64,000 bases of DNA from Haloarcula salinisoli (GTDB lineage Archaea > Halobacteriota > Halobacteria > Halobacteriales > Haloarculaceae), in NCBI RefSeq assembly GCF_019599405.1, contig NZ_RKLQ01000001.1, positions 1,612,001-1,676,000 of the forward strand, given 5' to 3'. Positions within the stretch are counted from its first letter, which is position 1; every line of letters begins with the position of its first letter. Below are positions 22,046-47,516 of the stretch, in pieces. A program made the position numbers and the translations under genes. The notes under the pieces were generated by a model. The model saw nothing but the letters and a program-made list of their open reading frames with translations. It ran no database searches and was not told the origin of the DNA.

Positions 22046-22067
22046 AAGCCGGTGGAGGGATGTGAAC
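22046..22067 (+). other. attL, copy of the tRNA-Thr 3' end
   Basis: aagccggtggagggat (22046-22061) is identical to 47495-47510. It is followed by one mismatch and then tgaac, again identical. In the tRNA this covers the discriminator base, the acceptor arm and part of the T arm. The copy lacks the rest of the tRNA, as expected for the displaced attachment half-site. Confidence 0.85.
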
Positions 22068-22108: not shown

Positions 22109-23353
22109 ATGACCGAAACGAGAGCCAAAGTCGAGTCCCTGCGTGAACGCATACAGGACTCCAGCGATATCTGCGAAGAGGACCGTGAGGCCCTCCTCGC
22201 GTTCAGTGATAGACTCTATCTGCTCAAATCGGAGTATACCGACTACCGACACGAGAAGCTGCTCCGTCACTGCACCCGAATAGCCGAGCAGGTCGGTGAT
22301 CTCGCAGCGGCCCGCGAGAACCGCAACGCTGCCGAGGACATCGTTCGGTGGATTAACCAGACCTACGACAACGAATACACGAACCACGACTACCGGACGG
22401 CCCTCCGAATTTTCGGCCGTCGGACGACCGACTGCGACGGCACGCCTGAAAGCATCGATTGGGTTCCATCGGGAACATCGAACAGCCACGACCCGGTTCC
22501 CGATCCGGCAGAGATGCTGAAATGGGAAGAAGACGTGATTCCGATGACCGACGAAGCACGAAACTCCCGCGACGCCGCGCTCATAACGGTCGCCTTCGAT
22601 GCAGGTGCTCGAAGCGGTGAACTGCAATCGCTCACCGTCGGAGACATTTCCGACGCGAAGCACGGCCTCCGTATCTTCGTGGACGGAAAAAAGGGACAGC
22701 GATCGGTTACACTGATCCCCAGCGTCCCCTACCTGCAGCGGTGGCTGAATGACCATCCCGGTAGTGACGACCCCGATGCGCCGCTCTGGTCGAAGCTCAG
22801 CGAGCCCGAAGAACTCACCTATCGACGGTTCCGGGCGATCTTCGACGATGTCGCGAAGCGAGCCGGCGTAACGAAGCCCGTCACGCCGACGAACTTCAGA
22901 AAGTCGAATGCCTCGTACCTCGCCGAGAAGGGGATGAACCAAGCCTACATCGAGGATCGCCAAGGACGAAAGCGAGGAAGTGATGCGACCGCCCACTATG
23001 TGGCTCGTTTCGGCGGCGAAGCCGAGAACGAGTACGCGCGAATGCAGGGCGTCGATATCGAAGAGGAAGAGCCCGAACCCCTCGGGCCAGTCAGCTGTCC
23101 ACGGTGTGGTAAAGACACCCCGCGTCACGAGCCGACCTGCGTCTGGTGTAATCAGGCTCTCGACCACGCTGGAGTGCAGGCACTCGAAGACGAGGAAAGA
23201 GAAGTTCGGGACGCACTCTTCCGGTTTGCTCAAGAGAAGCCGGAGCTGATCCAGGACCTCCAGCGTGCCCGTGACTTCACGGACCTGATCGAAAACAACC
23301 CCGACCTCTTCGGAGACGCGCAGTCCTTTGCCGAAGCGCTGTCTGAAAATTAG
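22109..23353 (+). CDS. int: Tyrosine recombinase (integrase)
   Basis: A 414-residue site-specific recombinase that would integrate and excise the element at tRNA-Thr. An N-terminal SAM-like core-binding domain (about 20-110) is followed by a catalytic domain. Arg168 in AGARSGEL, a basic strand DGKKGQRSV near 192, Arg264 in TNFRKSN (replacing HxxR), and the nucleophile Tyr297 in AHYVARFG are visible. A C-terminal four-Cys zinc finger (Cys330, 333, 344 and 347) follows. Its GC content is intermediate between the chromosome and the AT-rich interior. It begins 42 bases inside attL. Confidence 0.92.
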   Translation: MTETRAKVESLRERIQDSSDICEEDREALLAFSDRLYLLKSEYTDYRHEKLLRHCTRIAEQVGDLAAARENRNAAEDIVRWINQTYDNEYTNHDYRTALRIFGRRTTDCDGTPESIDWVPSGTSNSHDPVPDPAEMLKWEEDVIPMTDEARNSRDAALITVAFDAGARSGELQSLTVGDISDAKHGLRIFVDGKKGQRSVTLIPSVPYLQRWLNDHPGSDDPDAPLWSKLSEPEELTYRRFRAIFDDVAKRAGVTKPVTPTNFRKSNASYLAEKGMNQAYIEDRQGRKRGSDATAHYVARFGGEAENEYARMQGVDIEEEEPEPLGPVSCPRCGKDTPRHEPTCVWCNQALDHAGVQALEDEEREVRDALFRFAQEKPELIQDLQRARDFTDLIENNPDLFGDAQSFAEALSEN

Positions 23354-29906: not shown

Positions 29907-30331
29907 AGTCGCTCCTTGTACCATGCCTGCTTCTCTCCAATAGCTAAACCTTCGGTAGGTATCTCTATGGTGACTCCTGCGGATTCGATTAGCGGGAGAA
30001 GTTCATCGTAGTAGTCCTTGCCCGCGTGGAGGACCAGCGTAACATCCTCAAAGAGCAATCCCTGCCCATCTAGTTGCTTGGCCACCCTCTCAGCCCACTC
30101 ACGCTTCTTCGCCACTCTTGCACCACTGAGTGTCTCGTCGTAAGGTTCGATAGGGTCTGCGTCAGGATTGATGAGGCCGTGTTTGGCTGAAAGAACCCAC
30201 CACTCGTCGTGGTTTTGCTCTGCGTAGTCTCGCATCTTCTCGAAATAAGGAGACGTGTAGAGATTTCGCGGAGCGTCGGGTTCGTCCCGCTTGGTCTTGA
30301 CACAACTAACGAGGCCAATTTCTTGACTCAT
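29903..30331 (-). CDS. DUF6884 protein (YaaA-like), second gene of operon
   Basis: The ATG at 30331 overlaps the stop of the gene before it (ATGA). 142 residues. The signature VSCVKTKRDEPDAPRNLYTS then WWVLSAKHGLINPD then IEPYDETL is that of DUF6884, related to the YaaA-like DNA-binding proteins. It has no clear catalytic residues of its own. Its own stop overlaps the following GIY-YIG start by four bases. It is probably a DNA-binding or sensor partner in the three-gene unit. Confidence 0.75.
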   Translation of the reverse strand: MSQEIGLVSCVKTKRDEPDAPRNLYTSPYFEKMRDYAEQNHDEWWVLSAKHGLINPDADPIEPYDETLSGARVAKKREWAERVAKQLDGQGLLFEDVTLVLHAGKDYYDELLPLIESAGVTIEIPTEGLAIGEKQAWYKERL

Positions 30332-30930
30332 TCTATAATCTCCCACGTGATGACAGCCCCCTGTTGATGTACTGGATGCCGTAATCCGTCGAAGTGAGCC
30401 ACATTTCTGGTTTCTACCTCGAAATCATACCAGTATTCCACATCAAGGCAGAATTTCTCCCCAATACTTTTCGCACTCATTCGTTCGTATGGCTCATCGG
30501 TCGGTTCGTAGTATAGCCCAAGTAACCCTCCATACTCCTCAAAGTCTGCATCGCGAACCTTTTGAGCGTCGGTCAGCAGTGTCGAAGTCGTTTGCTCGGG
30601 AAAGGGGCTAAATGCTTTGGCAAAGCTGTTCGGGTCGATATTTCCGTTGTCATATCGGAAGCGAAGGAGCTTCGCTTCGACCGGGATTTCTGTCACCCCG
30701 CTCTTGATGAAGAGGTCTACTCGCTGGTCGCCGTTAGGATATGTTCGCTCAGTCTCGATGGAGTAGTTAGTATTATTTTCTACAGCATTTCGGAGCATCT
30801 CGACTTGTCTCTCTTCTTCGAATGGGCCAAGCCCTGGTTGCCAGCGACTATGTTCTGCCTCTGAATCGATTTCAGGTATGGCTTCAGCCAAATCATCTGC
30901 GAGTGATTTTAGTAGTATGCTCGTTTTCAT
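30328..30930 (-). CDS. PD-(D/E)XK nuclease-like, first gene of operon
   Basis: A 200-residue protein. Asp72 in RVDLFIKSG and Glu85-Ala-Lys87 in PVEAKLL form the D-(x)n-E-x-K core of PD-(D/E)XK nucleases. The N-terminal helix region includes FEEERQVEML. The rest is acidic and unassigned. It precedes the DUF6884 gene with a four-base overlap. It is a predicted DNA-cutting enzyme, possibly Mrr- or RecB-like. Confidence 0.75.
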   Translation of the reverse strand: MKTSILLKSLADDLAEAIPEIDSEAEHSRWQPGLGPFEEERQVEMLRNAVENNTNYSIETERTYPNGDQRVDLFIKSGVTEIPVEAKLLRFRYDNGNIDPNSFAKAFSPFPEQTTSTLLTDAQKVRDADFEEYGGLLGLYYEPTDEPYERMSAKSIGEKFCLDVEYWYDFEVETRNVAHFDGLRHPVHQQGAVITWEIIE

Positions 30931-32328: not shown

Positions 32329-32393
32329 CTATGCGTCTGCCTTTCCCGATTGAAAGGTTGGGATTGAATCTGAGGAGAGTAACAATTATTGGT

Positions 32394-34418
32394 ATGTATC
32401 CAGAGTTTACTAAAAAGGTGACGTTGCCCGCCAATTCGAAGTTCCGAGTAGCAAGCGTGTTTTCAGGAGCCGGAGGGCTCGACCTTGGTTTCGCCCTGCC
32501 CTCCATATTTCAAACTGTATTTCACCTCGATAATGATTCGACTGCGATCAGAACACTTCGGGAGAACAAGGAGGAATGGTTCGATGCAGAAGCGACCATC
32601 GTCAATCGGGACATCGTAGAGTTCGTAAAAGAACTCCAGGATGGGACGGCCGAGGCTAACCTTGATGTAGACCCTGACATACTCGTCGGTGGCCCACCTT
32701 GCCAGCCGTTCTCTGCCGCCGCCCGCAGAACGGGGGGTACAAACGGTACAGAGAGTGAGGAGGGACGATTGTTTCTGGCCTACTGCGATTTACTTGAGGA
32801 GTGGGAACCCTCTGCGTTTCTCTTCGAGAACGTCTACGGAATAACCTCAAATGATGAGGATTGGGAACCGATCAAACAAGCCTTCGAAAATGCGGGTTAC
32901 AAGGTGAAACCCAAAACTCTGGACACTGCCGATTATGGTGTTCCTCAACACCGGATAAGAACGTTCATAGTAGGAGTTAGAAAAGAATCGAACCGCGGAT
33001 ACCACTTTCCGAAGCCAACACATGGCCCAGAATCTGACGGGGGGCCTACGCTAAACACAGCCGGAGACGCGTTGTCAGGCCTCACAGTTGACGTGTGTGG
33101 TGATAAGTACTCGATGAATTCGAAACATGCCGACTTGTTGCCAGAAGTTCCTCCAGGCCTCAATTACAGCTTCTTCACTGAGAAGCTGGGCCATCCTAAT
33201 CCAAGATTCGCTTGGAGGTCGAGGTTCTCGGACTTCCTCTACAAGGCGATTCCGAGTGAGCCGGTTAGAACATTAAAAGCTCAACCCGGGGGAGCAAATG
33301 GACCGTTCCATTGGGACAACAGACGTTTCACCGAGTCAGAATTGAAACGATTGCAGTCTTTCCCCGATAATTACCAGTTGGCTGGAAGCTACTCGAAGGT
33401 AGTTAGGCAGATTGGCAATTCAGTCCCGCCAAGGATGGCGTGCGTCCTCGCACGCAGTATGGCTGCGCAACTGTTTGACTGGATTCCGGAAATGGAGTGG
33501 GAAAGTCCCTTCCTTCCGTACCAGTCTCTGTCTGAACGGGCTGTTCCTGATCAACTTTCCGATAATGCCGAACTAAACTTCCGGAGCAGGAAGCGCACTC
33601 CGTTGAAGGTACGTACTCAGCGAGCTCAGAAGCGGCTCGGTGACCGAGCGGAGATTAATAAAGAGGTTGACCCAGAATGGATTACTCCTCGAGAGTATGA
33701 ATTTGATTTGGGGGGCATAATTGAACTACTTGAGGAGGGATCATTTTATGAGGAGTTGCGAGAACGTCAGTATCTAGTAAATTCTCAGGTGGCCAATGGA
33801 ACTCACTCGGTGGATATAACTGGTGTGAATGACACCTCCGGAGGAACGATTGAACTCAAGCTAGTATCCGACGAGGGTTATCTCTTACCTGCTATTGAGG
33901 CTGCTGAAATCAAAGTAGTAGCTGAGGGTGTCGAAGTGCCAGATTTATTCTCGATTTGGGCGGTTCTGATAGAGGACATCAGAGCACGTACTGATTATGA
34001 GCAACTAATGAGTGTTGTCGGGCACTATTCTTGTGCCCCTAGCAATTTCTCAACCCATATCTCGTTCAACGGGATATCTGCAAGCCCATTACGCCAGGTT
34101 GCAGAATTCTTCTCGAGCGAAAACCACTGCAATCGATACTTCACTATCAGTGAAATCGCGGATAGTGCGGGTATACCGCGGCCAGCGCTGGTAAATACAT
34201 TGGAAAAACTGCGGGAACTGCGATACGATATCAGAACCCCCTCTACTCACTCTAACATTCAAAACTCTGAGTCTGGTGCCCCAGAGGTTCTCTGTACATA
34301 TCCATTCCCGAACTTGGTTTCCGCCTCACCATTCGATATGGGTGCCGAGTTGACAGAAATTCGAACTCACATTCAGGAGGACGTACTAACCGGAAAAATG
34401 CCCACCACATCGGAGTAA
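32394..34418 (+). CDS. drmMII: DrmMII, DISARM C5-cytosine DNA methyltransferase
   Basis: The start at 32394 (MYPEF) gives 674 residues. Residues 1-370 are a canonical m5C methylase: motif I FSGAGGLDLGF (23-33), motif IV GGPPCQPFS (nucleophile Cys103), ENV (145-147), QHRIR (185-189) and GNSVPP (341-346). The remaining 300 residues are an extra C-terminal part. One stretch there, Asp474 with Glu487-Leu-Lys489 in TIELKL, looks like a PD-(D/E)XK core, and a winged helix (FTISEIADSAGIPRPALVN) follows near 600. In class 2 DISARM this enzyme marks self-DNA. It is convergent with the other drm genes. Confidence 0.88.
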   Translation: MYPEFTKKVTLPANSKFRVASVFSGAGGLDLGFALPSIFQTVFHLDNDSTAIRTLRENKEEWFDAEATIVNRDIVEFVKELQDGTAEANLDVDPDILVGGPPCQPFSAAARRTGGTNGTESEEGRLFLAYCDLLEEWEPSAFLFENVYGITSNDEDWEPIKQAFENAGYKVKPKTLDTADYGVPQHRIRTFIVGVRKESNRGYHFPKPTHGPESDGGPTLNTAGDALSGLTVDVCGDKYSMNSKHADLLPEVPPGLNYSFFTEKLGHPNPRFAWRSRFSDFLYKAIPSEPVRTLKAQPGGANGPFHWDNRRFTESELKRLQSFPDNYQLAGSYSKVVRQIGNSVPPRMACVLARSMAAQLFDWIPEMEWESPFLPYQSLSERAVPDQLSDNAELNFRSRKRTPLKVRTQRAQKRLGDRAEINKEVDPEWITPREYEFDLGGIIELLEEGSFYEELRERQYLVNSQVANGTHSVDITGVNDTSGGTIELKLVSDEGYLLPAIEAAEIKVVAEGVEVPDLFSIWAVLIEDIRARTDYEQLMSVVGHYSCAPSNFSTHISFNGISASPLRQVAEFFSSENHCNRYFTISEIADSAGIPRPALVNTLEKLRELRYDIRTPSTHSNIQNSESGAPEVLCTYPFPNLVSASPFDMGAELTEIRTHIQEDVLTGKMPTTSE

Positions 34419-34586
34419 ACCAAATGTCGCGTATCTCGCTGACGAGATCGCTCGTCTCGTTCGTCAGTATCCTGCAGGTCACGCAGGGATTCTCTCCTCC
34501 GGACGGGGACCACTTCTCCCACGACCCAGCATAGGACACTCTGTTGACGCACTGATGTGTCTGGGCTGCTTGCTACCTCTGAATCC

Positions 34587-34867
34587 CTATCCGTCGAACC
34601 CGTAGGGGATCAGGCATCGGCTGTCGTCGAAGGCTTCCCTGAACATCGGCTTCTCCACGAAAGTCTTGCTTCGGGCGTTGATTTGCGTCGGCACGTCGTC
34701 GTGGTCCTCAGCCCATTCGCGGATGAACCCCACTCGAGCATATCACACTTCTCGGGAGGGTTGTTCTGGACCACGACGAAGTCTTCACAGGGAGCGATGT
34801 TGTGCCACTTCGGGATCTTGATCCCAGGAGGGAACTGGGCACATTTCAACTGGAGGAATAATTTCAA
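34587..34867 (-). pseudogene. Broken SRAP (YedK/HMCES-like) gene
   Basis: The minus-strand reading gives WHNIAPCEDFVVVQNN and DMLEWG. After a single-base frameshift it continues FIREWAEDHDDVPTQINARS then KTFVEKPMFREAF and RCLIP. The INARxxTxxEKPMFREAF and RCLIP motifs are the SRAP-domain signature. The frame then ends at TAG (34587-34589) in place of the conserved GFYEW. The N-terminal catalytic Cys is also missing. SRAP proteins crosslink abasic sites in single-stranded DNA. This copy is inactive, a remnant between drmMII and drmC. Small hairpins (such as gacgag/ctcgtc at 34441-34456) lie between it and drmMII. Confidence 0.75.
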
Positions 34868-34876
34868 CTACTTAGG

Positions 34877-35764
34877 TTAATCACGATTAGAAGATATCTG
34901 CTTACGATCGAATCCGCCGGCTACTCGTTCGACGTTGTGGAAATGTTCTGAATCCCGAAGCGATTCGAGCAACCCAATTAGTTCCCTGGCGGCAGCTCTT
35001 TCGAACCTAACTCCCAGCTCTAGATTTGAAAGAAAGCCTTGCCCGGTTACGTTTGCAGTTCCGAGATAAGCCTCCTCCTGATCAGTAGCCACGACCTTGG
35101 CATGGAAAGTTGACCAGCTCTCATCGTTGATATATTCATATAGTCTGACGTTGTTACCACAAGGAGAATCTAGCAAATGGTGGGTGAATTCCCGGTTGAA
35201 TTCTCCATCTTGCCCACCATAGGTGAGATATCGCGTTACTAGAGATATCGAACTGCCACGGTCGACTGCTGACAACAATGCAGGTCGCAACCGCTCAAAA
35301 GCTTCAGCAGAAAGAAATGGGCTAACAATCCAGACGTGCGAAGATGCATTCTTGATTATGTCTAATACGCCTGTGAGTAGGTCATTGAAGCCGTCTGTGG
35401 AAAGTGCATCATCGTCAGGAAAGGTTGCTAACAAATCGACAGGGGGTGAGATCTCCTGGCGCTGCTGGAGCAGCTCCGCGGTGTAACCTATTGTCGGGAG
35501 GGCACGAGTTCGTGTACGAACTGCATCTGAACCAATGTATCTGTGATAACGGAGGTGATCGAGCAACTGTTCTAGTTCATGATTAGGAGCCTTGATTTCG
35601 ACTTCGGCGCGCAGGCCATCGACGCTTACATTCGTATTTTGCTGTTGAAGATATCGGAGAGTGGTTCCAACGACTTCGTAGTCGTATGATCCAGAGAGAT
35701 TCAGAAATGCTGACGCCGTTTCAACAAGCAGCTCTCTATCCATCGGTCCGCCATAATCAACCAT
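34877..35764 (-). CDS. drmC: DrmC, DISARM PLD-family nuclease
   Basis: A 295-residue protein with a phospholipase-D-type motif: His221-Ala-Lys223 followed by Asp228 (HAKVVATD), and GTANVTG at 235-241. VWIVSPFLS near 144 is the preceding strand. Only one HKD motif is present, as expected for a dimeric PLD nuclease. It is last in the drmE-drmA-drmB-drmC operon, one base after drmB. DrmC is reported as dispensable for DISARM in some systems. Confidence 0.87.
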   Translation of the reverse strand: MVDYGGPMDRELLVETASAFLNLSGSYDYEVVGTTLRYLQQQNTNVSVDGLRAEVEIKAPNHELEQLLDHLRYHRYIGSDAVRTRTRALPTIGYTAELLQQRQEISPPVDLLATFPDDDALSTDGFNDLLTGVLDIIKNASSHVWIVSPFLSAEAFERLRPALLSAVDRGSSISLVTRYLTYGGQDGEFNREFTHHLLDSPCGNNVRLYEYINDESWSTFHAKVVATDQEEAYLGTANVTGQGFLSNLELGVRFERAAARELIGLLESLRDSEHFHNVERVAGGFDRKQISSNRD

Positions 35765-35765
35765 A

Positions 35766-37775
35766 TTAAATAGAGAGATAGCCGTCTATTTCTTCTCCGT
35801 CGCCCCCAGGTTTCCCTTCGTCAAACGGACCTCCGAAGAGAGTTGCCCGTCCGAGGTTGTGATTCGTATTATCTGTCGACATTGCTGGTAGGTAGAGACA
35901 ATGCTCACAAGCCCCATTTTCGTCCGCATAGCAGACCCGATCGAGAGGGCAGGTTATCTGCTCCTGAAGTTGCGTATGGAACTGATCAAACCGTTCTTCA
36001 AACAGCGATAGCACAGTCCCGAGGGCTTGATCTGTGTCTGGACGTTTGTAGACGAGGAATGAAAGCGTATGCGGCATAAGCCGCTCAACCAAGCTTTCAC
36101 GTTGATGTCCCGATAGGCTCCCCATCGTGTTCATAAATACGTGAGCATAGGTGTTGATCAATGAATAGATATGCCGAGAAATACATTGTCGCTCATTAGT
36201 CAGTAAGTGAGTGCCATCTCGGTCATCCACTAAGCTATCATATCGACCGGGAGCTGCTATACGATCGACGAACCACATTCGAGCATCGTCGGGACTCGGA
36301 CGATTTGCATCCGTGATGACGTTGTTTTCGACCAGCCAGTCTAATACGAGTTCAGGATCTAATTTGACCAATACACCTTCCGCTCTCATTTCTTGGGCGT
36401 AGAACGTTGGGAACGGATCACTCTGTGTCGTGAATGTGTTGAGCTGTAGGTCAACTTGCTCGGAGTCGGAGGTATTGGCCCCGTCAGGATTGTCATTCTG
36501 AGCAGGACTTGCCTCAGTGTCAACAGCATCTCTTACATTTTGGGGTTCAGATTTGACACGTGTGTACCCATAAGTGACCGTTGTCAGTGGGATATCTTCG
36601 ATCAAGTGAAGCTGCTCGATGTTGAGTGAGTTGAGAATTTCACGGTATGACGCTAATGTCGACTCTGTGAGGTGGGTATTCTCCGGAGATTCGATTAGTT
36701 CCTGAACCGAATTCGCTGTATAGTCACCTGTCGGCTGATATTCCTCATTTTTGGTCAGACTCAGAAATTCATAGCATTCCTGTGTAAGACTGGCTTTTTG
36801 TTGATCATCGAAACCGGACCTGTTTTCTAGCCAATCCTTGATATGCCTGCGATGTTCTTCTCTATCTGGGAGGAGTGCCGTTTTTGCTTGCTCTCGTGCG
36901 CGGCGTTCCTCATCCTCATCAGCCAACATGAATTCTTCAGTGCCGCCTAAGAGTTCGGCCGCTTTTTGCTTGATCTCGCTCTCAGTCGGATATTGAATAT
37001 CTGTCGCAAGTACATAGTCACTGATGACCTTCGCACGATACCGGGTTCGATCAATATTCTCTAGTCCTTCCTGAGCATTAACAAAGTCCTCAGACTGAGG
37101 GTAGAAAACGCTCGAGTCAGTGTGGTTCGTGACCATCAGGTCATCATTGTCGCATGACGGGTCTGGGCAGCTCACATCAGTTGCCATAAACGGTATCGAC
37201 TCCGAACAGCCCGGGTGGACACAGTGCCATTCCCAGCTAGACATCCGGGTCGTGGGACGATCCAGTTCCATATTGAGTTCTGTCCCATCATGTGTGTGTG
37301 TCGGGGCCCAGAGTTGGTCTATTGCTCCACATTCACAGATCGCGACGAATGGGAGCTGATCTGTGACCGATAATCTCTTATTACAATTATCACATGAAAA
37401 GAGGCTATCAGTGTCTAGACTTGCAATTTCACGCTCATCATTGTAATCAAATCGAAGAAACATACCACACTGGGAACACTCAAATGTTCTTGGATAGGTA
37501 TGGTAGATAGCACCTCCAGGAACAACGATATCAACGTCATTGTAGAGATCGATGTCGAGTAACTCTTCTGAATTTGGCCATCTGTAGAGATGCTCCTTTA
37601 CCCGCCCTATGAGGAAGTCTTCTGGAGCTTCGAGTTCAACATACTGTCCGGCCTCCGTTCGCCGGTCCACACTCCTGATTCGTCCACTTGCCTGAATTTG
37701 TGCGTGGTTCAGCGTATTTCCCGGAAGAAACTCATACTGGAATTTAGACAGAGAGCGGTCCATGTCTTCAACCAT
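35766..37775 (-). CDS. drmB: DrmB, DISARM DUF1998-type protein
   Basis: A 669-residue protein. The C-terminal CLDRVCYADENGACEHCLY then NHNLGRATLFGG is the DUF1998 signature, found in helicase-associated proteins. The N-terminal third carries Cys pairs for several zinc ribbons (CSQCGMF, CDNCNK, CECGA, CVHPGC, CPDPSC). In known DISARM DrmB forms a complex with DrmA that loads on foreign DNA. The start overlaps the drmA stop by one base, indicating one operon. Confidence 0.85.
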   Translation of the reverse strand: MVEDMDRSLSKFQYEFLPGNTLNHAQIQASGRIRSVDRRTEAGQYVELEAPEDFLIGRVKEHLYRWPNSEELLDIDLYNDVDIVVPGGAIYHTYPRTFECSQCGMFLRFDYNDEREIASLDTDSLFSCDNCNKRLSVTDQLPFVAICECGAIDQLWAPTHTHDGTELNMELDRPTTRMSSWEWHCVHPGCSESIPFMATDVSCPDPSCDNDDLMVTNHTDSSVFYPQSEDFVNAQEGLENIDRTRYRAKVISDYVLATDIQYPTESEIKQKAAELLGGTEEFMLADEDEERRAREQAKTALLPDREEHRRHIKDWLENRSGFDDQQKASLTQECYEFLSLTKNEEYQPTGDYTANSVQELIESPENTHLTESTLASYREILNSLNIEQLHLIEDIPLTTVTYGYTRVKSEPQNVRDAVDTEASPAQNDNPDGANTSDSEQVDLQLNTFTTQSDPFPTFYAQEMRAEGVLVKLDPELVLDWLVENNVITDANRPSPDDARMWFVDRIAAPGRYDSLVDDRDGTHLLTNERQCISRHIYSLINTYAHVFMNTMGSLSGHQRESLVERLMPHTLSFLVYKRPDTDQALGTVLSLFEERFDQFHTQLQEQITCPLDRVCYADENGACEHCLYLPAMSTDNTNHNLGRATLFGGPFDEGKPGGDGEEIDGYLSI

Positions 37776-40700
37776 TATTGCCCACCTCGTACGAGTGCGT
37801 CGAGGAAATCATTTGTGTCGTCGAACGGTCGAACAGACCCTTGATCACCGATGTCCCGTAGGTTACGCATGGGCCCTTCATCCCGAGGAAATCCAGGAGT
37901 ATTCATCTCACTTCCGAGTTCATTGTTCCAGATTGCCCACAGACGCCGTGTTTCCGATTCTAGGTATGTCCGAATATGATTAATAGAACGTGTTGCCGTA
38001 TCAGTCCCGTAGAGCCGTTTAACCATCTCAATAGTCTTTTCTTTGGTGACATCCGGGTATTTCGAATCACGATGCATTATCTCATAGAAGTGATCTGCTG
38101 TCTGAACATTCAATCGCTCTTCTTCGCCATCGTCATTGACGTACATTGATCGCTCTCCATCAGTCGAATCCCAGTAGTATTTTGGACGGTAGTATTGCAG
38201 GAGGATACTCTTGAGAATTCCTGGGAAGGTCTGCTCTGCACCAAATTTGGCCCATCGGTCGATTGCAACCGGCTCAACCGAGCGATCAAGATGCTCATGG
38301 AGTGTCTCAAAGTACTTGTATCGATGGCGGTCTCGCTGATCAAACGGTCTGAAAAAGTCGATAACAAATCCGGGGGTCCCACTGGAGCGTCCGACACGAG
38401 AAGATGCTTGAATATACTGGAAAGTTTGTGATGGATACCCAAAGAAGACCATGAAATTAAATCTGGGATTATCGATACCGTGACCAACAAATGACGTACA
38501 CGGGATAGTGTCAGTCCGGTTTTCGAATTCTTCAGGAGGATCAAGGAGCGTATCAAGTACTCCTGTCCCCTGTGTATCAGCGGTCAATTGTTGGATATTG
38601 AGAGGTCGATTGTAGCCCTCTGAAGCCATTTCATCGGCAATTTGCTTTCCGATGCTATTCCGATATGTGTCCTTCTCGCGCTTATTTGTGAAGTAGACAA
38701 GAGACGTTTCATACTTATCCAGAATATCGGTCTGAGTTTCTGCATCAAATGAGTCTGCCCAATCCGCTTCGTTAACAAGATTATTGATTTTAGATTCTAC
38801 GATCTCGGATTTGGACGTTCCTGAACGGAGACTATACGACGTTTTTATTATATCTCGAACCACCTCTCCTGGAGTCGCGTCCTGGTAGTCCCGAATATTC
38901 TCGTGGTACTGCTTAATAAAGTCAAGAACAGCATAGAGGTGGGTTCGATTGTTCGGTGTGACGCCACCAAACTCTCGCTCGACTTCGCTTTCGCTAAGCT
39001 CACCGTAGTACGTTTCTCGAAGTTCAGGTCCGTCCTGAGGAAAGCGAACTGCGTCCTTCTGGAATAGATTTTGAATCTGGCGTTTGTATTTAGAGATTGT
39101 CGCTGTTGAGGTGAGAACTTTCGGCTCAACCCCACCCTCAATGCTTGGCTCATCTTGGTCTTGCCAAGCACTGGCCAGCTTACAGAATTCCAAGTATGCT
39201 GTTTCGTAGTGGCCGGCAAATGTTCCAAGTTCTTCATTCAACAGATGCACCTCGTCAATGAGGTGGAGAGACGGAATAGGATCAAAATATAGGGCATCCC
39301 GGTCGGCCCTTGTTCCAGGATCTAACTCCGACAGATTGTCCGACTCTTCACAGATATCCTTTTCTGGACATCGATCACTATAACCTGGCCCGTGAACAGA
39401 ACACTGGGAAGTCATATTGCCGAAAATATTCGCAAACCGGGGCTGGAATCCCATGACAGAGACCTTATCAAGAGATCCAAGCAGAACTGATGGTAGATAG
39501 CGATACACGTCATGATCGACGACATAAAGCGGGAGACGCCCAACACAATCATCCCCGGTACAGAAGTGTTCTACTAGATTTCTTGCTTCGTCAAACTCAA
39601 CTCTGACCTCAGAGTTACATAGAGGGCAGGCTGACACAACCTGACAATCATTTCTCACAGCCTGCTGCCGAGATAAATATAGTTTTCTTTTGTCCTCACC
39701 GATAGAATTGGGTGTATCTTGACCCCCGACGAAGAACCCGAGGGAGAACTCATCCCCGATTCCATTCAATCCAAACTCTTCAGAATCTGGTTCGCCGTCC
39801 GCTCGGCGGAACTCTTCTGCAACCAGGAGAGCCTTTAGGAACCGAGATTTCTGCTGAGACGAAAGTAATCTAAGGGGGAATCGGATCCAAGCGGAGACAC
39901 CACGGTCCTTTCCTCGAATACGGTCAAAGAATAGCGTAGTAAGGACAATTCCGAGATATGCCTCTGTTTTCCCACCCCCAGTTGGGAACCATAGTACATC
40001 AGCATCATCGCTGAAGTCTGTTTCGTACTTATTTCGACGGTCTGCAGGATCACGAGCGACAATATCAGGTAGATTAGAAACAATATAAACGAGTTGAAAG
40101 AGCCGCCAACCATCGAATCCTTCATCGGTTGCGAGTTCACTATGGACTCGATGGTTTACTCGATTCATTAACTGGAATGCCCTTTTCGCTTCGTCATCAT
40201 CAGCCAACATCTCAATACCGGCCTCAAAGCGATCGATCTCTACGTCACGGAATGCCTCGGCGTCGTCTTCAAATGCTCTAACTTCTTGAGGGGAATGGGT
40301 TTCCTCGAATTCTGCTTTCCGAGTCCCTGTCCAATCATTGTGATAGCTTCGCATCCCGCGGGCAATCGATCGGAGCGCCTCGATCGTCCCGTTGCCGGTA
40401 GTGCCAGCTAACGTCAAGAAGCGAGTATCATGTGTGTCCCTGAAATCGAATTCATAGACACTCGCTGTAGGGACAGCCGTCGTTTGGAGTTTGAACCATC
40501 CAGTCGGCGCCTCTATGTCACTATCCAACTCTGACGATTTCTCAATAGCCTGGTTACCCACAGAACAGTTGTGACCCTTCGCCCAGACCTCCTGACTAAA
40601 CCGGTAATCTTCCGGGACTAGATCAAGTTCGTACGCTGCTACTGGGCCAGCGACTTCGATGACTGGGTTAAATACACACTCCTCTTTGGGTTCGCGTGCA

Positions 40701-41470
40701 TCTGCATTAGGATCCCAGATCAATTCGGGCGTTCCCTCGCCTCTATGTGGGATGCTGAATCGATCTCCAAATGAGTTGAGTTCCAACCGTAGCCGAAGTT
40801 GATCCTCGGATTTCTCTGCTGTGAACTCGATCGGCCACGTGAGATTGCCGATTGGATGGTGCCGCAGTCGGTCTACTGCATCCTGATAACCGGATTCGGT
40901 GAGATTGTGTAACTCTAAATCACTCTCCTTAGGATCTAAGGTCGTGGTTGTCGGCTGTGTAATCCTACTCGCCTTCTCAAGCGCATCTTCAAGTTCAGCA
41001 TGTAATTGTTGAGTTATTTGGGCTGCATCAGCTTGAAGCGATTCGAGACTGATTTCAGTCTCAAATGCAACATCTACCCGTCGGTAGAACGGGTCATCAA
41101 ACGCATACGAATTCGCACTGCTGTTCTGCCGTTCGGCTGTATCGTCGCCCTCTTCCTCCGTTGCTGTTAGGTCTCGATATTCAGAGTAGGTCGGATAGGT
41201 CTGATAGTAGACTTCAAATTCAAGTAAGATCGGGTACTGCGTGGCAATGGGCTGGAAATCGAGTCCGATGGAATTCGGCTTTATTTCTGCACTCTTCGTA
41301 GATTCTTCGTCGTCACTCGGAGGAGTGAGGTTCGAGATATAGTAAGCCCGCTTGGGTTCCTCGGAGACGCAATATGGTTGATGATGGCCCCGAACTTGCT
41401 GCAGTGTCCGTTCTGCTAATGCAGTCCCAATCGATCGTTCAGCCGTGTTCCCGCCTTTAAAGTTTGACAT
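37775..41470 (-). CDS. drmA: DrmA, DISARM helicase
   Basis: A 1231-residue superfamily 2 helicase. Motif I PTGGGKTE (496-503), DEVH (739-742), STAT (788-791), and motif VI QASSRVGR (1021-1028) are intact. A Cys cluster (about 615-707: CPLC, CTGDDC, CSVHG, CPEKDIC) between motifs I and II would bind zinc. The N-terminal 480 residues are a large domain unlike other helicases. DrmA is the DNA translocase of DISARM. The size agrees with known DrmA (about 1200-1300). It is 12 bases after drmE. Confidence 0.88.
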   Translation of the reverse strand: MSNFKGGNTAERSIGTALAERTLQQVRGHHQPYCVSEEPKRAYYISNLTPPSDDEESTKSAEIKPNSIGLDFQPIATQYPILLEFEVYYQTYPTYSEYRDLTATEEEGDDTAERQNSSANSYAFDDPFYRRVDVAFETEISLESLQADAAQITQQLHAELEDALEKASRITQPTTTTLDPKESDLELHNLTESGYQDAVDRLRHHPIGNLTWPIEFTAEKSEDQLRLRLELNSFGDRFSIPHRGEGTPELIWDPNADAREPKEECVFNPVIEVAGPVAAYELDLVPEDYRFSQEVWAKGHNCSVGNQAIEKSSELDSDIEAPTGWFKLQTTAVPTASVYEFDFRDTHDTRFLTLAGTTGNGTIEALRSIARGMRSYHNDWTGTRKAEFEETHSPQEVRAFEDDAEAFRDVEIDRFEAGIEMLADDDEAKRAFQLMNRVNHRVHSELATDEGFDGWRLFQLVYIVSNLPDIVARDPADRRNKYETDFSDDADVLWFPTGGGKTEAYLGIVLTTLFFDRIRGKDRGVSAWIRFPLRLLSSQQKSRFLKALLVAEEFRRADGEPDSEEFGLNGIGDEFSLGFFVGGQDTPNSIGEDKRKLYLSRQQAVRNDCQVVSACPLCNSEVRVEFDEARNLVEHFCTGDDCVGRLPLYVVDHDVYRYLPSVLLGSLDKVSVMGFQPRFANIFGNMTSQCSVHGPGYSDRCPEKDICEESDNLSELDPGTRADRDALYFDPIPSLHLIDEVHLLNEELGTFAGHYETAYLEFCKLASAWQDQDEPSIEGGVEPKVLTSTATISKYKRQIQNLFQKDAVRFPQDGPELRETYYGELSESEVEREFGGVTPNNRTHLYAVLDFIKQYHENIRDYQDATPGEVVRDIIKTSYSLRSGTSKSEIVESKINNLVNEADWADSFDAETQTDILDKYETSLVYFTNKREKDTYRNSIGKQIADEMASEGYNRPLNIQQLTADTQGTGVLDTLLDPPEEFENRTDTIPCTSFVGHGIDNPRFNFMVFFGYPSQTFQYIQASSRVGRSSGTPGFVIDFFRPFDQRDRHRYKYFETLHEHLDRSVEPVAIDRWAKFGAEQTFPGILKSILLQYYRPKYYWDSTDGERSMYVNDDGEEERLNVQTADHFYEIMHRDSKYPDVTKEKTIEMVKRLYGTDTATRSINHIRTYLESETRRLWAIWNNELGSEMNTPGFPRDEGPMRNLRDIGDQGSVRPFDDTNDFLDALVRGGQ

Positions 41471-41482
41471 TATATTTTATGT

Positions 41483-43828
41483 TTAATCGCTTGTTGACTC
41501 AGTAGTCTGTTGGTTCCCACTTTGGTTAGAAGACGTTTCTAGTTGATCAATGCCTTTGACCGTAAGCCGTTTAGTATCTTCGCGGATTCGCCGCCGAGTT
41601 ACCTCATCATAATATTGGGACTGTGAGCTATCCGTTGTTGCGTCTAACTCATGCTCAATAAGCGGTCGAATTCGTCGGCCAATCTTGTTGTGGCGGTCGC
41701 GAATCCGTTGCGCCGCTTCATTGACATCAGTGGCTAGGGTTTCGAACATACTGGCATCGACGCCAGGTCGGCACAGTTGATAGACTCGCTTGATATCCTC
41801 AGGATCATCAGGCGCGATTGTCTTTCCGTACCGCCAGAGAGTAATCGTGACCGGGGAGGTGATATCCGATCCCATTTCCTGTAGCTGTTGTTGAAATTCC
41901 TTGACTATCCAATTCTCTTGTTCTAAGGTTCGGTTTAGTTGGTCCCTCCAACCTTCAACAAGATCAGTGTCCTCACGAATCCTTTCGCGTTCTTGGGCAT
42001 GATCAATGACAATATCATAGATGTCATCTGCGATATCGTCAATAAGAAGGATCGTATCGCCTCTTTCCAGACTCTTCGCCCGGGTTCGGACGATATCACC
42101 TTCAGCAGGGGAATATTTCGTAACCCGAGAGAGCGGCGTAAGCGTAATTCGCTCGTGGTCCTCCTCGAATGTGAGTTTCAGACGTTCTGACGGCTCCGAT
42201 TCATCATCGCTGTCTGTATTAGCAGGGTTGTTAACGGCCGATTCGTCACTAGACTCCTCCGAATCATTGCCGGCACCCCACAAAGAAGAGCTACTCATCA
42301 ACTGGCTTGCGTCACCCCCATTCGTAGAGTTGGACGCAACTGGGCCTACACTCGTCACTTCAGATTCTATGTCATCCAGATCGATGGGCTCTCCGTCCAA
42401 GCTACCGCCACCAACAGTGTGCTCTTGTTGGGATACAGACTCCCCAGCAAGAGCCCTAGCTCGATGAATAATAAACTGGTTCAGGATTTTGTGATGTACG
42501 AATGCAACAGTCTCACTCCTCGGGAACTCATAATGGTTCGAATCCCGAGGAGCCACCCCAGCGTAGACAGTTCGACTGTCTTTGACTGGATCTATGTCTG
42601 ATTTCGTTGTTAAGACAATATTCTCGGATTCTCCGACCGTGAAATCCCGTTCCTCCGCCGCTAGGATGAACGCTTCCTGGACACGTTTATTGCTGAATAC
42701 AAACCGCGTGGGATTGTCTTGTTCCCGTGCCCGCTCCACTGCATTCAAGAGATAGTTTTGAAGTGGTTGCTCGTCGTTCAGGGTTGCTTCTAACTGGGTA
42801 GCTGTCTCAGTGAAGTTACGGATTCGACCACCACCATGACTAATTTGTTCTGCGATTAGATTCAGACGGTCGACTTGCTGCGGAATGGAGTCAAAGTATC
42901 CGTGGGACTTGCTCACGCGATTCCAGTATTTTGGCTTGACTGGCAATTGGGTTAACCGGTTATATAATCCGCCAACAACTTTGGGGGCAATATTTCGTTC
43001 CTGTAGTTCGATTTTCTTAGCAGCGAACTGTCGATGGAGATGGTCTACTTCTTCAGCGATGATACTATAGTAATCGTATGAGACGTCACCCACAGCAAGA
43101 AGATTCTCAATAATCGCTAATTTTGTGTCCAGGTTGACGGGTATCGACTCTATCGGAGAAGACTCTAGGTGAGTCGGGCGTATCTGAATCTGCTCGTCAG
43201 AGTGAGTCCGAGCTAGGTCATATCCCATTCCGTAGCCATCGGAGTCCCCAATAAATGCAACCCGTCCTTTCCCTGCAGCCGCGAACAGCTCTACTAATTG
43301 CCGTGCATATGTATCATGCCAACGCGGCGCTCGCAGGTCGATGATTATCCCTGCTGGGAGGGGTGTCCCGGATTCAATATCGAAATTAAACTGGCTATTA
43401 GCGGTGAAAATCCCCCAGCGGTTTTCCATCTCTGATAAAGAATTCACCACATAACGGGGAACGGGATCACTTCCCTCCTTGTACGTCGGGTTTGTCGTAT
43501 CCCGATAGTGGAACCGGTCAAAAACGGTTGTATACCCTTGGCGGGGAAAAAGAAGAACAGGGAAGTTGCCACCACCACGATTGGGATGCTCGTCAAAAGC
43601 AAGAGCTACTGCCAGTCCAACCGGAATTGAATTTGAAGGGAACGAAGTCTCGATCAGGATACTCTCTTCAGATTCGATGTTTCTGACTGCACGCTCTGTC
43701 ACTGCAGCTTCCACAGGGGAGAGCGTAAACCGATCACCGTCGACTCGGATATTTCCAGCCTGAAAGCCAGCAAGAGCTCCGCGAGAATAGCACTCACTCG
43801 CAAGGGATCCAATATTTTCAGGATCCAT
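41483..43828 (-). CDS. drmE: DrmE, class 2 DISARM protein
   Basis: A 781-residue protein at the head of the drm operon. There is no domain I can name, but the size, the gene order drmE-drmA-drmB-drmC and the m5C partner all match class 2 DISARM. Visible segments are FIGDSDGYG near 196, FVFSNKRVQEAFILA near 375 (a strand-helix like a helicase second RecA domain), a Ser/Asp-rich linker (about 475-550), and an RGDTILLIDDIADDIYDIVID segment near 592-612. Reading as a degenerate helicase-like fold is inference. Confidence 0.8.
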   Translation of the reverse strand: MDPENIGSLASECYSRGALAGFQAGNIRVDGDRFTLSPVEAAVTERAVRNIESEESILIETSFPSNSIPVGLAVALAFDEHPNRGGGNFPVLLFPRQGYTTVFDRFHYRDTTNPTYKEGSDPVPRYVVNSLSEMENRWGIFTANSQFNFDIESGTPLPAGIIIDLRAPRWHDTYARQLVELFAAAGKGRVAFIGDSDGYGMGYDLARTHSDEQIQIRPTHLESSPIESIPVNLDTKLAIIENLLAVGDVSYDYYSIIAEEVDHLHRQFAAKKIELQERNIAPKVVGGLYNRLTQLPVKPKYWNRVSKSHGYFDSIPQQVDRLNLIAEQISHGGGRIRNFTETATQLEATLNDEQPLQNYLLNAVERAREQDNPTRFVFSNKRVQEAFILAAEERDFTVGESENIVLTTKSDIDPVKDSRTVYAGVAPRDSNHYEFPRSETVAFVHHKILNQFIIHRARALAGESVSQQEHTVGGGSLDGEPIDLDDIESEVTSVGPVASNSTNGGDASQLMSSSSLWGAGNDSEESSDESAVNNPANTDSDDESEPSERLKLTFEEDHERITLTPLSRVTKYSPAEGDIVRTRAKSLERGDTILLIDDIADDIYDIVIDHAQERERIREDTDLVEGWRDQLNRTLEQENWIVKEFQQQLQEMGSDITSPVTITLWRYGKTIAPDDPEDIKRVYQLCRPGVDASMFETLATDVNEAAQRIRDRHNKIGRRIRPLIEHELDATTDSSQSQYYDEVTRRRIREDTKRLTVKGIDQLETSSNQSGNQQTTESTSD

Positions 43829-44156
43829 TAATCCATGTTGACAAGGTATCGCTATTCATTAAGTACTTACCACTTATTCAATTCCAAATTACATAATGAT
43901 TTGGATTGCACATCTATTCAATATTCTGTCAGGTGCAATCATATATCGGCCTTCTCTATCATAGTTAGTACCTCAGTCTATTGAGGAAATTCTGGCAGTT
44001 TTAATCACTTATTCAAACAAATCATATGGCTAGCATGTTGACGAGAGTCCCGGTTGAAGCCCATTCTTGTTGATGACCGCGTTCTACAGAAGATCTAAGC
44101 CCAGACACTCGTCGACTATATGAAGACAGGGGCCATCAAATAGCACTCGCGCACAT
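43829..44156. other. AT-rich intergenic region upstream of drmE
   Basis: No credible gene is seen. The 100 bases nearest drmE are strongly AT-rich (runs such as attaagtac and attcaattcc on the plus strand) and probably hold the operon promoter on the minus strand. The stretch from about 44035 to 44150 looks like decayed coding sequence (interrupted frames), possibly a transposase remnant, but nothing identifiable. Confidence 0.4.
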
Positions 44157-45068
44157 TCAAGACTCGAATCCGTGGAGTTCTCGATGACCTTCGATCACCT
44201 GCTGATCCGGCACTTTGTCGAGGCTTTTGGGTTCTAACAGTTGATTCCCTGCAAGAGATGCAACTTCCTCAGGAAGTTCACGCTCCGACCATTCGTTCAC
44301 GGTCACGGTTCTATCGTCGGTTAGGCTGAACCACCCCGAGTCGAACGCCCAATGGTGGAGTTTACAGAGTGCGATTCCGTTCCGTACATCGTCGTCGCCG
44401 CCTTCCGACTTCGGATAGATGTGAGCGGCTTCTACTTCCGGATGCCCTGTTGGAGTTCGTCGAGACTGACCACAAACCGCACACGTGTAGTCATACTGCT
44501 GCTTCACTTCACGAGCAAAGGTGGTCGATCTCACTCGACGTCTACTTTCGGTATACTCGGGATCGTTGTCGATTAATAAAGGTGAGTCCTCATCTGGGTC
44601 GCTCACTTCCTCAGCCATTTCCTGGTACTCCTCCCAACTTGCTACCCCGAGCTTCTGCAGTTCGAACTTGTAGACCATCCGCGAACCGTCGCTCACATAC
44701 CTGTAATTTTGAACGTCGACGAGGCCCTCGTATTCGTACTCGTCGACCCCTTCCTCACTTGTGAACAGATAGATGGGACGCAACTCAGATTCCGCCTCGA
44801 TGAGCGCTCCGTTCGCATAGTCTGATGATTGGTCCCCCTTTTCCTCCTTACCCTCACCTTCGTAGATCAGTGTTCCATCGTCACGGTGTTGATCGTCGTA
44901 GATTTCCCCCGCATTAGAATTCAGGATGATAAATTTCCCCTCATCGCGAGTGCGGGGCGTTATTCCTTTGAACTGAAACCCGAAGTTCGCGCTAAAAACG
45001 TCGTCTACCTCTTCTTGAGACAGCCTTTCACCAATTTCTAATGGCCAGGATAGTGCAAAATCCACCAT
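44157..45068 (-). CDS. HNH endonuclease with SRA-like N-terminal domain
   Basis: A 303-residue protein. The C-terminal HNH domain has Cys196-x2-Cys199, the catalytic His216 in EAAHIYPKSEGG, Asn230, Cys235 and His238-His239. The N-terminal 140 residues carry TLIYEGEGKEEKGDQ and ANGALIEA then RPIYLF then YEYEGLVDV. This pattern is that of SRA-type modified-base readers found in McrA-like and related restriction proteins. The combination predicts a modification-dependent nuclease, which would be odd beside an m5C methylase. It lies upstream of drmE, with a separate promoter region between them. Confidence 0.78.
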   Translation of the reverse strand: MVDFALSWPLEIGERLSQEEVDDVFSANFGFQFKGITPRTRDEGKFIILNSNAGEIYDDQHRDDGTLIYEGEGKEEKGDQSSDYANGALIEAESELRPIYLFTSEEGVDEYEYEGLVDVQNYRYVSDGSRMVYKFELQKLGVASWEEYQEMAEEVSDPDEDSPLLIDNDPEYTESRRRVRSTTFAREVKQQYDYTCAVCGQSRRTPTGHPEVEAAHIYPKSEGGDDDVRNGIALCKLHHWAFDSGWFSLTDDRTVTVNEWSERELPEEVASLAGNQLLEPKSLDKVPDQQVIEGHRELHGFES

Positions 45069-45764: not shown

Positions 45765-47414
45765 CTATCCGGGGTTCAGGTACTGCCAGGCGTTAGCGAG
45801 ACTACCGTCGCTAAATCGAATTCTCGCCATGCGGTACCGCTGGGCTGGGAGTCCTGCATCCTCCCAGATCTCGAAGCCCTCCCGAATGACTCGACCGGCT
45901 CGCTGACCAGGAGCACCAAACCGCATTTCCATCCGTGCCTCACGCCGGCTGAGAGCATCGTCGATGTCGATACCATGTCGGGCGGCCCAAGCGATGAAGA
46001 CGCTCATCGTCTCGTCCATGCCCTGCTGAGCAGTCCTGACAGCCTTCGCGCCTGCCTCGGCAGCGCGCTTCACAGCGTCTTCTGCCTCTGTGACGGCCTG
46101 GTGGACGAGATCAGCGATATGGCTCGACCGGAGACTTACTCGGGCGTATTCACGCTCCACTAAGTCCTCAATCCCGCGCAGCGCTCGGCGGACACTCTCA
46201 ACGTGCCGACCGTGCTCATCAGCGATATCGGCTGGCGAAACTTCACCGCCGTCGGTGACGAGTGTCTGTAGGCTCTCCCACTGAACTGGACTGAGACCAT
46301 CTGCGAGGTGGCGGATGACGACGCTCTCCTGAGTCGACCGTATCTCAGTCACGTCCAGTGCGATCACTTCCGGGCCGCTCTCTGTGGTTTTCGCGTCAAA
46401 GTACGCATCTGTGACGAAGATACCGGTCCCGTGCGTAGGGGCGATATCGAGCCCGGCATCAGCGAGGACCGACAGTAGCGTCTGGTCGAGCTCTCTCTGG
46501 AGCTGGTCGAGGTCGTCGGGTGTAACTCCAAGGGTCTCGTTCCACCGGCTCACTTGGTAGGACACACCCACCTTCGGATGTGCCAAGGGTGAGTCGCCAG
46601 ACTGAGAGAGCGCGTGCCTCGCGTAGTAGTGTTTGATCTCCTTAGGGAGGGCATGGTCGGGGAAGACCTCGCGGACGCGTCGTGGGCCGAGCGTGACCGT
46701 GTGATAGTACCCTGGGAGATTACGCCCGTACTCGTCATCGTCGTTCTGTACGACTTTGCGGTATCCGGCACGATCGTTTTCCAGGAGGTGTGCCATCGAG
46801 GCGATCGGGCCATCACGGGCGTGGACCGGCCCGCTAGTTTCCTTAGCAAGACGGACGTACCGTTCGGCATCTTGGATGTTGCTGTACTCGTGTGGGACCT
46901 CGAAATAGTCACCTCGAACCCTGACAGCCGCAGCTGCTGATTGAAGCAATCGCTGGTAGCGCGCGAATTCGATATTCGACCCGGCGATTTTCACGTTGAT
47001 AGCCTCTATAATCGGCTCCGGGACCGAATGCTCCGAGACATTTCCGTACTTGTTCTCGGTTTTCATTCCCTGCCAACGGGGAGCCAGGTGAGCATTGAAG
47101 TCTTGTTCACCGACTGGATCCTCATCTGGGTGACGAGCGACTTTCAGTCGAAACTCCCGCATCTCGTGGAGCCGCCACTCTGTCCCAGTCGGTAGTCGAG
47201 TACCCGGATGGACGATATTGCTCTCCTGGAAATACAGCTTCACGATCCACTGCTCCCCCTGGTCGGTGAATTCAGCGACTTGGCTGCCGTCGCCTGCTTT
47301 CACTCGTGAGTCGGCGGCGAAGTACGGGGCCAGCCCGTTCTCGTCGAACAGGAAGTTCGCGGAGAATTCGTGTGGGGCCGGCTCGATGTACCCCGTCACG
47401 CGCGACACCTCCAT
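45765..47414 (-). CDS. Large winged-helix element protein, DUF7845-like
   Basis: A 549-residue protein at the right end of the element, its start 81 bases from the attachment site. The N-terminal part (MEVSRVTGYIEPAPHEFSAN) and the middle have no named domain. A winged helix of MarR/Lrp type is visible near 372-425 (LSPVQWESLQTLVTDGGEVS then ADEHGRHVESVRRALRGIED). An Ala-rich helical C-terminus follows. I believe this is the DUF7845 family seen beside tRNA-integrated haloarchaeal elements. It probably regulates or maintains the element. It is more GC-rich than most of the interior. Confidence 0.65.
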   Translation of the reverse strand: MEVSRVTGYIEPAPHEFSANFLFDENGLAPYFAADSRVKAGDGSQVAEFTDQGEQWIVKLYFQESNIVHPGTRLPTGTEWRLHEMREFRLKVARHPDEDPVGEQDFNAHLAPRWQGMKTENKYGNVSEHSVPEPIIEAINVKIAGSNIEFARYQRLLQSAAAAVRVRGDYFEVPHEYSNIQDAERYVRLAKETSGPVHARDGPIASMAHLLENDRAGYRKVVQNDDDEYGRNLPGYYHTVTLGPRRVREVFPDHALPKEIKHYYARHALSQSGDSPLAHPKVGVSYQVSRWNETLGVTPDDLDQLQRELDQTLLSVLADAGLDIAPTHGTGIFVTDAYFDAKTTESGPEVIALDVTEIRSTQESVVIRHLADGLSPVQWESLQTLVTDGGEVSPADIADEHGRHVESVRRALRGIEDLVEREYARVSLRSSHIADLVHQAVTEAEDAVKRAAEAGAKAVRTAQQGMDETMSVFIAWAARHGIDIDDALSRREARMEMRFGAPGQRAGRVIREGFEIWEDAGLPAQRYRMARIRFSDGSLANAWQYLNPG

Positions 47415-47494: not shown

Positions 47495-47516
47495 AAGCCG
47501 GTGGAGGGATTTGAAC
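47495..47516 (+). other. attR, within tRNA-Thr
   Basis: The 22 bases match attL at 22046 with one difference. They cover the 3' end of the tRNA-Thr gene, so integration here leaves the tRNA intact. Confidence 0.85.

What the first reader, a model, noticed from the sequence alone, without database searches (positions are those of the whole stretch)
32394..43828. Class 2 DISARM on a haloarchaeal integrative element
The m5C methylase, a DEVH helicase with Cys cluster, a DUF1998 protein, a PLD nuclease and a 781-residue DrmE-sized protein occur together, the four on the minus strand in one tight operon. This matches drmMII plus drmE-A-B-C. DISARM blocks phages by methylation-marked discrimination. 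Here drmMII is on the opposite strand and convergent, with a broken gene between it and drmC, so the two halves use separate promoters.
Basis: partly seen in the sequence, partly recalled or inferred. Interest (0 to 1): 0.75.

Follow-up and report, generated by a model that had tools for sequence, protein, structure and literature searches.

The report
Archaeal class 2 DISARM antiviral locus
A salt-loving archaeon carries, on a piece of mobile DNA inserted at a tRNA gene, an intact set of five genes for a known type of antiviral defence (class 2 DISARM), in which the DNA-marking enzyme has apparently been swapped for one from a restriction-modification-like family.

Summary
Window 32331-43828 holds an intact class 2 DISARM gene set: drmE-drmA-drmB-drmC in a tight minus-strand operon, and a convergent plus-strand cytosine-5 methylase. 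DrmE passes the curated Pfam DrmE_N and DrmE_C cut-offs and NCBIfam DrmE_fam. DrmA matches DISARM DrmA models to 7e-116 and Serratia DrmA in the PDB. DrmB finds Serratia DrmB only as a profile (1.2e-13) and keeps the four-Cys zinc motif. DrmC keeps the HxK(x4)D motif. The module (32368-43929) recurs as a unit, 89-90% identical, in Halorubrum sp. Atlit-26R in a different setting, with dN/dS 0.08-0.20. The carrier is a ~25.5-kb element at tRNA-Thr with att repeats and an integrase. The "broken gene" is an SRAP-family remnant in a 482-bp insert absent from the Halorubrum copy. The neighbouring SRA-HNH gene is not part of the system. Convergent methylase placement also occurs in Halobacterium. The methylase is not the orthologue of the one in its closest DISARM kin, so it was probably replaced. 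DrmE is predicted to be a motif-less SF2-helicase-like protein (weak evidence). New member of a known kind, moderately interesting for modularity. No function was tested.

The parts
32331..34418 (+). DNA cytosine-5 methyltransferase (drmMII role), 695 aa; catalytic part ~36-381 plus a ~300-aa C-terminal extension; start may be 32394
   Evidence: PF00145 1.4e-56, TIGR00675 5.8e-51; GGPPCQPFS and ENV motifs; syntenic copy in L002, 87.7% aa, dN/dS 0.195
34877..35764 (-). drmC, phospholipase-D-family nuclease, 295 aa
   Evidence: PF13091 7.9e-14, NF038319 2.6e-14 (below its cut-off), PADLOC DrmC 9e-14; HAKVVATD motif at residue 221
35766..37775 (-). drmB, DUF1998-type zinc protein, 669 aa
   Evidence: PADLOC DrmB 1e-21, NF038324 5.1e-10 (below its cut-off); family profile finds Serratia DrmB 7s9v_B at 1.2e-13; Cys 609/615/623/626 invariant in 8 aligned DrmB
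37775..41470 (-). drmA, SF2 (YprA-family) helicase, 1231 aa
   Evidence: PADLOC DrmA 7e-116, NF038325 1e-102 (below its cut-off), PDB 7s9v_A Serratia DrmA 2e-44; PTGGGKT, DEVH and QASSRVGR motifs
41483..43828 (-). drmE, 781 aa, the class 2 signature protein
   Evidence: PF24955 DrmE_N 1.8e-79 and PF24957 DrmE_C 2.5e-41, both over the cut-off; NF038316 DrmE_fam 86.4 bits against cut-off 80; only copy in the genome
43829..43929 (-). region upstream of drmE that stays alignable with L002; candidate operon promoter
   Evidence: blastn match ends at 43929; upstream alignment
34392..34873 (.). 482-bp insert between methylase and drmC with a broken SRAP-family gene remnant; not part of the system
   Evidence: absent from L002, where the two genes abut; relatives of the remnant carry PF02586 SRAP
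22109..23353 (+). tyrosine integrase of the carrier element
   Evidence: PF00589 1.8e-14, phrog_216 integrase
22046..22061 (.). left attachment repeat AAGCCGGTGGAGGGAT
   Evidence: identical to 47495-47510; no other copy within 2 mismatches in the window
47495..47510 (.). right attachment repeat at the 3' end of tRNA-Thr (47496-47569, minus strand)

Best explanation
The locus is a complete class 2 DISARM of a haloarchaeal branch, carried by an integrative element at tRNA-Thr. Most likely mechanism, by homology with characterised DISARM: DrmA (SF2 helicase) and DrmB (zinc DUF1998 partner) form an autoinhibited complex that loads on exposed 5'-overhang single-stranded DNA of invading or replicating viral or conjugative DNA. 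Loading activates ATP hydrolysis and translocation, which blocks replication and leads to destruction of the DNA, with DrmC as an auxiliary nuclease. The cytosine methylase marks host DNA and damps activation on self. DrmE acts with DrmAB, perhaps as a non-catalytic DNA-binding or recruiting subunit. The methylase is transcribed separately, towards drmC, and was probably acquired from a restriction-modification-like family in place of the drmMII of the sister operons. Shown here: intact genes, family membership, synteny, purifying selection, element ends, discordant methylase ancestry. Inferred from published work: DNA loading, methylation damping, virus restriction. Speculative: the role of DrmE.
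For: Family matches. DrmA and DrmB find the two chains of the solved Serratia DrmAB structure 7s9v. Catalytic and zinc motifs are intact. The DrmA tree places the window beside haloarchaeal methylase-drmE-A-B-C operons, 87/90, inside a 100/100 clade of DrmE-linked helicases. The whole module, methylase included, recurs in Halorubrum sp. Atlit-26R at 89-90% DNA identity in a different setting without the SRA-HNH gene, with dN/dS 0.08-0.20 for all five genes. Halobacterium has the same gene set with a convergent methylase, and its DrmE, DrmA and DrmB score 408-1128 bits against PADLOC DISARM models. Published mechanism: PMC9142583.
Against: DrmA, DrmB and DrmC fall below NCBIfam's equivalog/subfamily cut-offs, so this is a divergent branch and behaviour may differ. 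The solved and mechanistically studied complex is class 1, from Serratia. Class 2 DISARM is reported to protect against modified phages, which sits uneasily with simple methylation marking (PMC9142583). No expression, methylome or virus data exist for this strain in what was available.
Confidence: 0.88

Rival explanations
1. The methylase is an independent solitary or restriction-modification methylase that merely neighbours a drmE-A-B-C operon, which works without it.
For: Its nearest relatives (47-49% identical, with the same C-terminal extension) are not near drm genes and sit by a conserved ~445-aa gene in four genomes; it is not the orthologue of the methylase in sister operons; it is on the opposite strand.
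Against: It moved together with drmE-A-B-C: the alignable block in L002 runs from just inside the methylase start to ~100 bp upstream of drmE, while flanks differ. It is under purifying selection (dN/dS 0.195). No homologue of the ~445-aa gene was found in the window's genome. A cytosine methylase lies beside the drm genes in most other haloarchaeal loci of this type, including a convergent one in Halobacterium.
Confidence: 0.12
2. It is another YprA/DUF1998 system (ARMADA, BRIGADE, Dpd, Druantia) rather than DISARM.
For: These share a YprA-family helicase with DISARM; BRIGADE is reported only from halophilic archaea (PMC12458937).
Against: The DUF1998 part is a separate gene here, which that paper gives as typical of DISARM, whereas it is usually fused to the helicase elsewhere. 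DrmE is present. No BrxHII/PglX pair or deazaguanine gene cluster was seen among the element genes scanned. All PADLOC matches of the helicase are DrmA.
Confidence: 0.02
3. A decaying, non-functional relic.
For: A broken SRAP remnant is inserted between methylase and drmC; one copy on a mobile element.
Against: All five frames are open with motifs intact and dN/dS 0.08-0.20 against the Halorubrum copy; the insert begins just at the end of the methylase reading frame and ends before drmC.
Confidence: 0.04

Closest known systems
Class 2 DISARM (drmMII, drmE, drmA, drmB, drmC), defined by Ofir et al. 2018 (own knowledge; the paper is not held)
   Same: Full gene set, with order E-A-B-C in the operon.
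   Different: The methylase is convergent on the other strand, carries a ~300-aa extension and comes from another methylase branch; DrmA, B and C are below NCBIfam cut-offs.
Class 1 DISARM of Serratia (DrmAB structure 7s9v, PMC9142583)
   Same: DrmA and DrmB are homologous; SF2 helicase plus separate four-Cys DUF1998 protein.
   Different: DrmE is present; no drmD or adenine methylase was found among the genes scanned on the element.
Halorubrum sp. Atlit-26R locus NZ_QPLT01000004.1 (L002)
   Same: Same five genes, same orientations, 89-90% DNA identity.
   Different: No 482-bp insert, no adjacent SRA-HNH gene, different surroundings.
Halobacterium sp. GSL-19 plasmid pGSL19_284 (L035)
   Same: drmE-A-B-C with a convergent cytosine methylase.
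   Different: DrmA ~32% identical; short 373-aa methylase of another branch.
Archaeal class 2 DISARM in Woesearchaeales proviruses (PMC11705971)
   Same: DrmE, DrmA, DrmB and a type II methylase on an integrated archaeal element.
   Different: Different archaeal group; proviruses rather than this tRNA-Thr element; DrmC is not listed there.

Membership tests
Class 2 DISARM | DrmE present | tested here: met
   PF24955 266.5 bits and PF24957 141.8 bits (cut-offs 27); NF038316 86.4 bits (cut-off 80)
Class 2 DISARM | DrmA helicase | tested here: met
   PADLOC DrmA 7e-116; Serratia DrmA in PDB 2e-44; Walker A, DEVH and motif VI present; below NF038325's equivalog cut-off
Class 2 DISARM | Separate DrmB with DUF1998 zinc module | tested here: met
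   PADLOC DrmB 1e-21; profile to 7s9v_B 1.2e-13; C609/C615/C623/C626; below NF038324's cut-off
Class 2 DISARM | DrmC PLD nuclease | tested here: met
   PF13091 over the cut-off; DrmC models 1e-13 to 1e-14; HxK(x4)D; below NF038319's cut-off
Class 2 DISARM | Cytosine-5 methylase (drmMII) linked to the drm genes | tested here: met
   PF00145 1.4e-56, motifs intact, syntenic with the module in L002; PADLOC scores generic type II and Druantia methylases above DrmMII
Class 2 DISARM | Restricts viruses, with host DNA methylated by drmMII | not testable with these tools
   needs virus challenge and a methylome
Class 1 DISARM | DrmD and adenine methylase DrmMI | tested here: not met
   none among the element genes scanned; the DrmA tree keeps it apart from class 1 rows
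ARMADA / BRIGADE / Druantia | DUF1998 fused to the helicase, BrxHII/PglX or deazaguanine genes | tested here: not met
   DUF1998 part is a separate gene; no such partners among the element genes scanned

The most novel reading that the evidence does not exclude
In this archaeal DISARM branch the self-marking methylase is an exchangeable part: the core drmE-A-B(-C) has been paired at different times with unrelated methylases in different positions, so the effector cannot depend on one methylation motif. DrmE is an SF2-helicase-like protein that has lost its ATPase motifs and serves as a DNA-sensing scaffold for DrmAB.
Probability: 0.25. Interest if true: 0.55.

Novelty: new member of a known kind. 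Interest (0 to 1): 0.33.

Why it matters
How DISARM tells self from non-self is unsettled: published work favours DNA structure with methylation as a brake, and the roles of DrmE and of less conserved parts are open (PMC9142583). Two nearly identical archaeal systems with a methylase from another branch than that of their closest DISARM relatives, on a self-contained ~11.5-kb module from haloarchaea (a group with genetic model species), would let one test whether the effector cares which sites are methylated. It also documents mobile carriage of class 2 DISARM in haloarchaea.

Tried and rejected
SRA-HNH gene 44157-45068 as a DISARM subunit: rejected. It is absent from the Halorubrum copy, relatives occur in 230 of 391 haloarchaeal genomes, and its closest relatives are in genomes without a drmE match or far from drmE; only one other locus (L022) has one within ~11 kb. 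Function of the methylase's C-terminal extension: AlphaFold model pLDDT 68; Foldseek gave only weak winged-helix-like matches, none at E <= 0.001; undecided. The extension was not detected in five other haloarchaeal DISARM methylases. DrmE and DrmA as related proteins: profile comparison found nothing. DrmE profile against PDB sequences: nothing convincing. Searches of phage records for DrmE and viral contigs for DrmA found no relative. Single-sequence search of DrmB against PDB missed Serratia DrmB; the profile found it. Ofir et al. 2018 is not in the held library.
Full report
WHAT IS THERE. Between 32331 and 43828 the window holds five intact genes. On the minus strand, in transcription order: drmE (41483-43828), drmA (37775-41470), drmB (35766-37775), drmC (34877-35764), with a 12-bp gap, a 1-bp overlap and a 1-bp gap between them.

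IDENTITY. DrmE passes the curated cut-offs of both Pfam DrmE domains and of NCBIfam DrmE_fam. DrmA matches PADLOC DrmA at 7e-116 and NCBIfam DISARM_DrmAS at 1e-102, and its only PDB match is Serratia DrmA, 7s9v_A, 2e-44. DrmB is the weakest on its own (PADLOC 1e-21, NCBIfam 5e-10), but a profile of eight haloarchaeal DrmB finds Serratia DrmB at 1.2e-13, and the four cysteines of the DUF1998 module (609, 615, 623, 626) are invariant. DrmC has a PLD domain with an intact HxK(x4)D motif. NCBIfam's strict cut-offs are not reached by DrmA, DrmB or DrmC, which marks this as a divergent branch, not as a different family.

RELATIVES. DrmE_N occurs in 11 of 391 sampled genomes of the class. A near-identical module lies in Halorubrum sp. 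Atlit-26R (L002): window 32368-34391 and 34874-43929 align at 90.2% and 88.8% identity, and the genes outside differ. All five genes show dN/dS 0.08-0.20 between the two copies and no internal stops. Similarity therefore covers the methylase plus drmE-A-B-C and ~100 bp upstream of drmE, and little else. The two genes that converge abut in Halorubrum; in the window they are parted by a 482-bp insert with a frameshifted remnant whose relatives are SRAP-family proteins.

ARRANGEMENTS. Other haloarchaeal loci show: methylase upstream and co-directional (L013, L014, L015, L017, L018); methylase upstream and divergent (Halarchaeum, DL31); downstream co-directional (Halorhabdus); downstream convergent (window, Halorubrum, and the more distant Halobacterium plasmid pGSL19_284). 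So the convergent layout is real but not unique. A further sub-branch (L016, L019, L020, L021, L034) has drmE-A-B without drmC; in L019 and L020 the drm genes converge on UvrD/PD-(D/E)XK, AddAB-like genes, with N4/N6-type methylase genes nearby.

METHYLASE ORIGIN. In the DrmA tree the window and Halorubrum are sister to the co-directional operons (87/90) within a well-supported clade. In the methylase tree they are not: they group (99/99) with methylases of other haloarchaea (three in the tree, a fourth by alignment) that share the C-terminal extension, are not near drm genes, and lie by a conserved ~445-aa gene of unknown family. No homologue of that gene was found in the window's genome, and the extension was not detected in five other haloarchaeal DISARM methylases. 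The simplest reading is replacement of the methylase in this lineage. That the ~445-aa gene is a restriction enzyme is an inference from its position only.

CARRIER. A tyrosine integrase (22109-23353) lies by a 16-bp repeat (22046-22061) identical to the 3' end of tRNA-Thr (47495-47510), the only two such sites in the window; G+C is 0.506 inside and 0.64-0.66 outside. Next to the tRNA is a regulator of a viral family (phrog_3288, 1e-197). The element, about 25.5 kb, also carries a PADLOC phage-defence-candidate gene (29205-29924, PDC-M57B, 2e-71) and an SRA-HNH gene (44157-45068), which is common in haloarchaea and not linked to drmE.

HOW IT LIKELY WORKS. By homology with Serratia DrmAB (PMC9142583): an autoinhibited DrmAB loads on 5'-overhang DNA, methylated DNA stimulates it less, and activation leads to a block or destruction of the invading DNA, with DrmC dispensable in the tested systems. 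These steps are inferred, not shown here. DrmE: an AlphaFold model (pLDDT 72, pTM 0.56) matches SF2 helicases in Foldseek (best E 9.6e-7, MDA5; also Hef and FANCM) with low TM-scores (0.2-0.5), and no Walker A GK[ST] or DExH is seen at the strands that would carry them in 12 aligned DrmE. A profile comparison with DrmA found no relation. A degenerate helicase-like scaffold is thus a hypothesis only.

KNOWN OR NEW. Class 2 DISARM in archaea is already reported (PMC11705971), PADLOC's DrmE, DrmA and DrmB models match the Halobacterium system nearly at full length, and NCBI annotates haloarchaeal DrmE-family proteins. This is a new, divergent member. The swapped methylase and the possible DrmE fold are the parts worth a specialist's attention. 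Interest 0.33.

Noticed in passing
L019 13-14114, L020 61-14207, L021 204-14419: drmE-A-B without drmC, converging on UvrD helicase / PD-(D/E)XK (AddAB-like) genes in genomes of two families; L019 also has N4/N6-type methylases by drmE. Possibly a distinct DISARM variant with another nuclease module.
   Followed up: partly
window 41483-43828: AlphaFold model of DrmE resembles SF2 helicases, yet Walker A and DExH motifs are missing in all 12 aligned DrmE proteins.
   Followed up: partly
L030 11578-12927, L031 6256-7590 and 10377-11753, L032 11925-13256, L033 12127-13458: A conserved ~445-aa family without Pfam or PADLOC match sits beside the extended cytosine methylases; possibly an undescribed restriction-enzyme family.
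   Followed up: partly
window 29205-29924: Strong match to PADLOC phage-defence candidate PDC-M57B (2e-71), next to a DUF6884 gene (29903-30346): a possible second defence system on the element.
   Followed up: no
window 44157-45068: SRA-HNH endonuclease gene upstream of drmE, of the phosphorothioate/modified-DNA restriction type; below NCBIfam's cut-off.
   Followed up: yes
window 45765-47414: DUF7845 protein matching phrog_3288 transcriptional regulator (1e-197) beside the tRNA-Thr attachment site, pointing to a virus-related element.
   Followed up: no
L022 923-14313: The most divergent drmE-A-B of the set is followed by a 719-aa protein with a weak membrane-domain match, then an SRA-HNH gene and a cytosine methylase.
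   Followed up: no
L045 12951-15311: Halobaculum plasmid: the place of the convergent methylase after drmC is taken by a 786-aa protein with only weak PADLOC matches.
   Followed up: no
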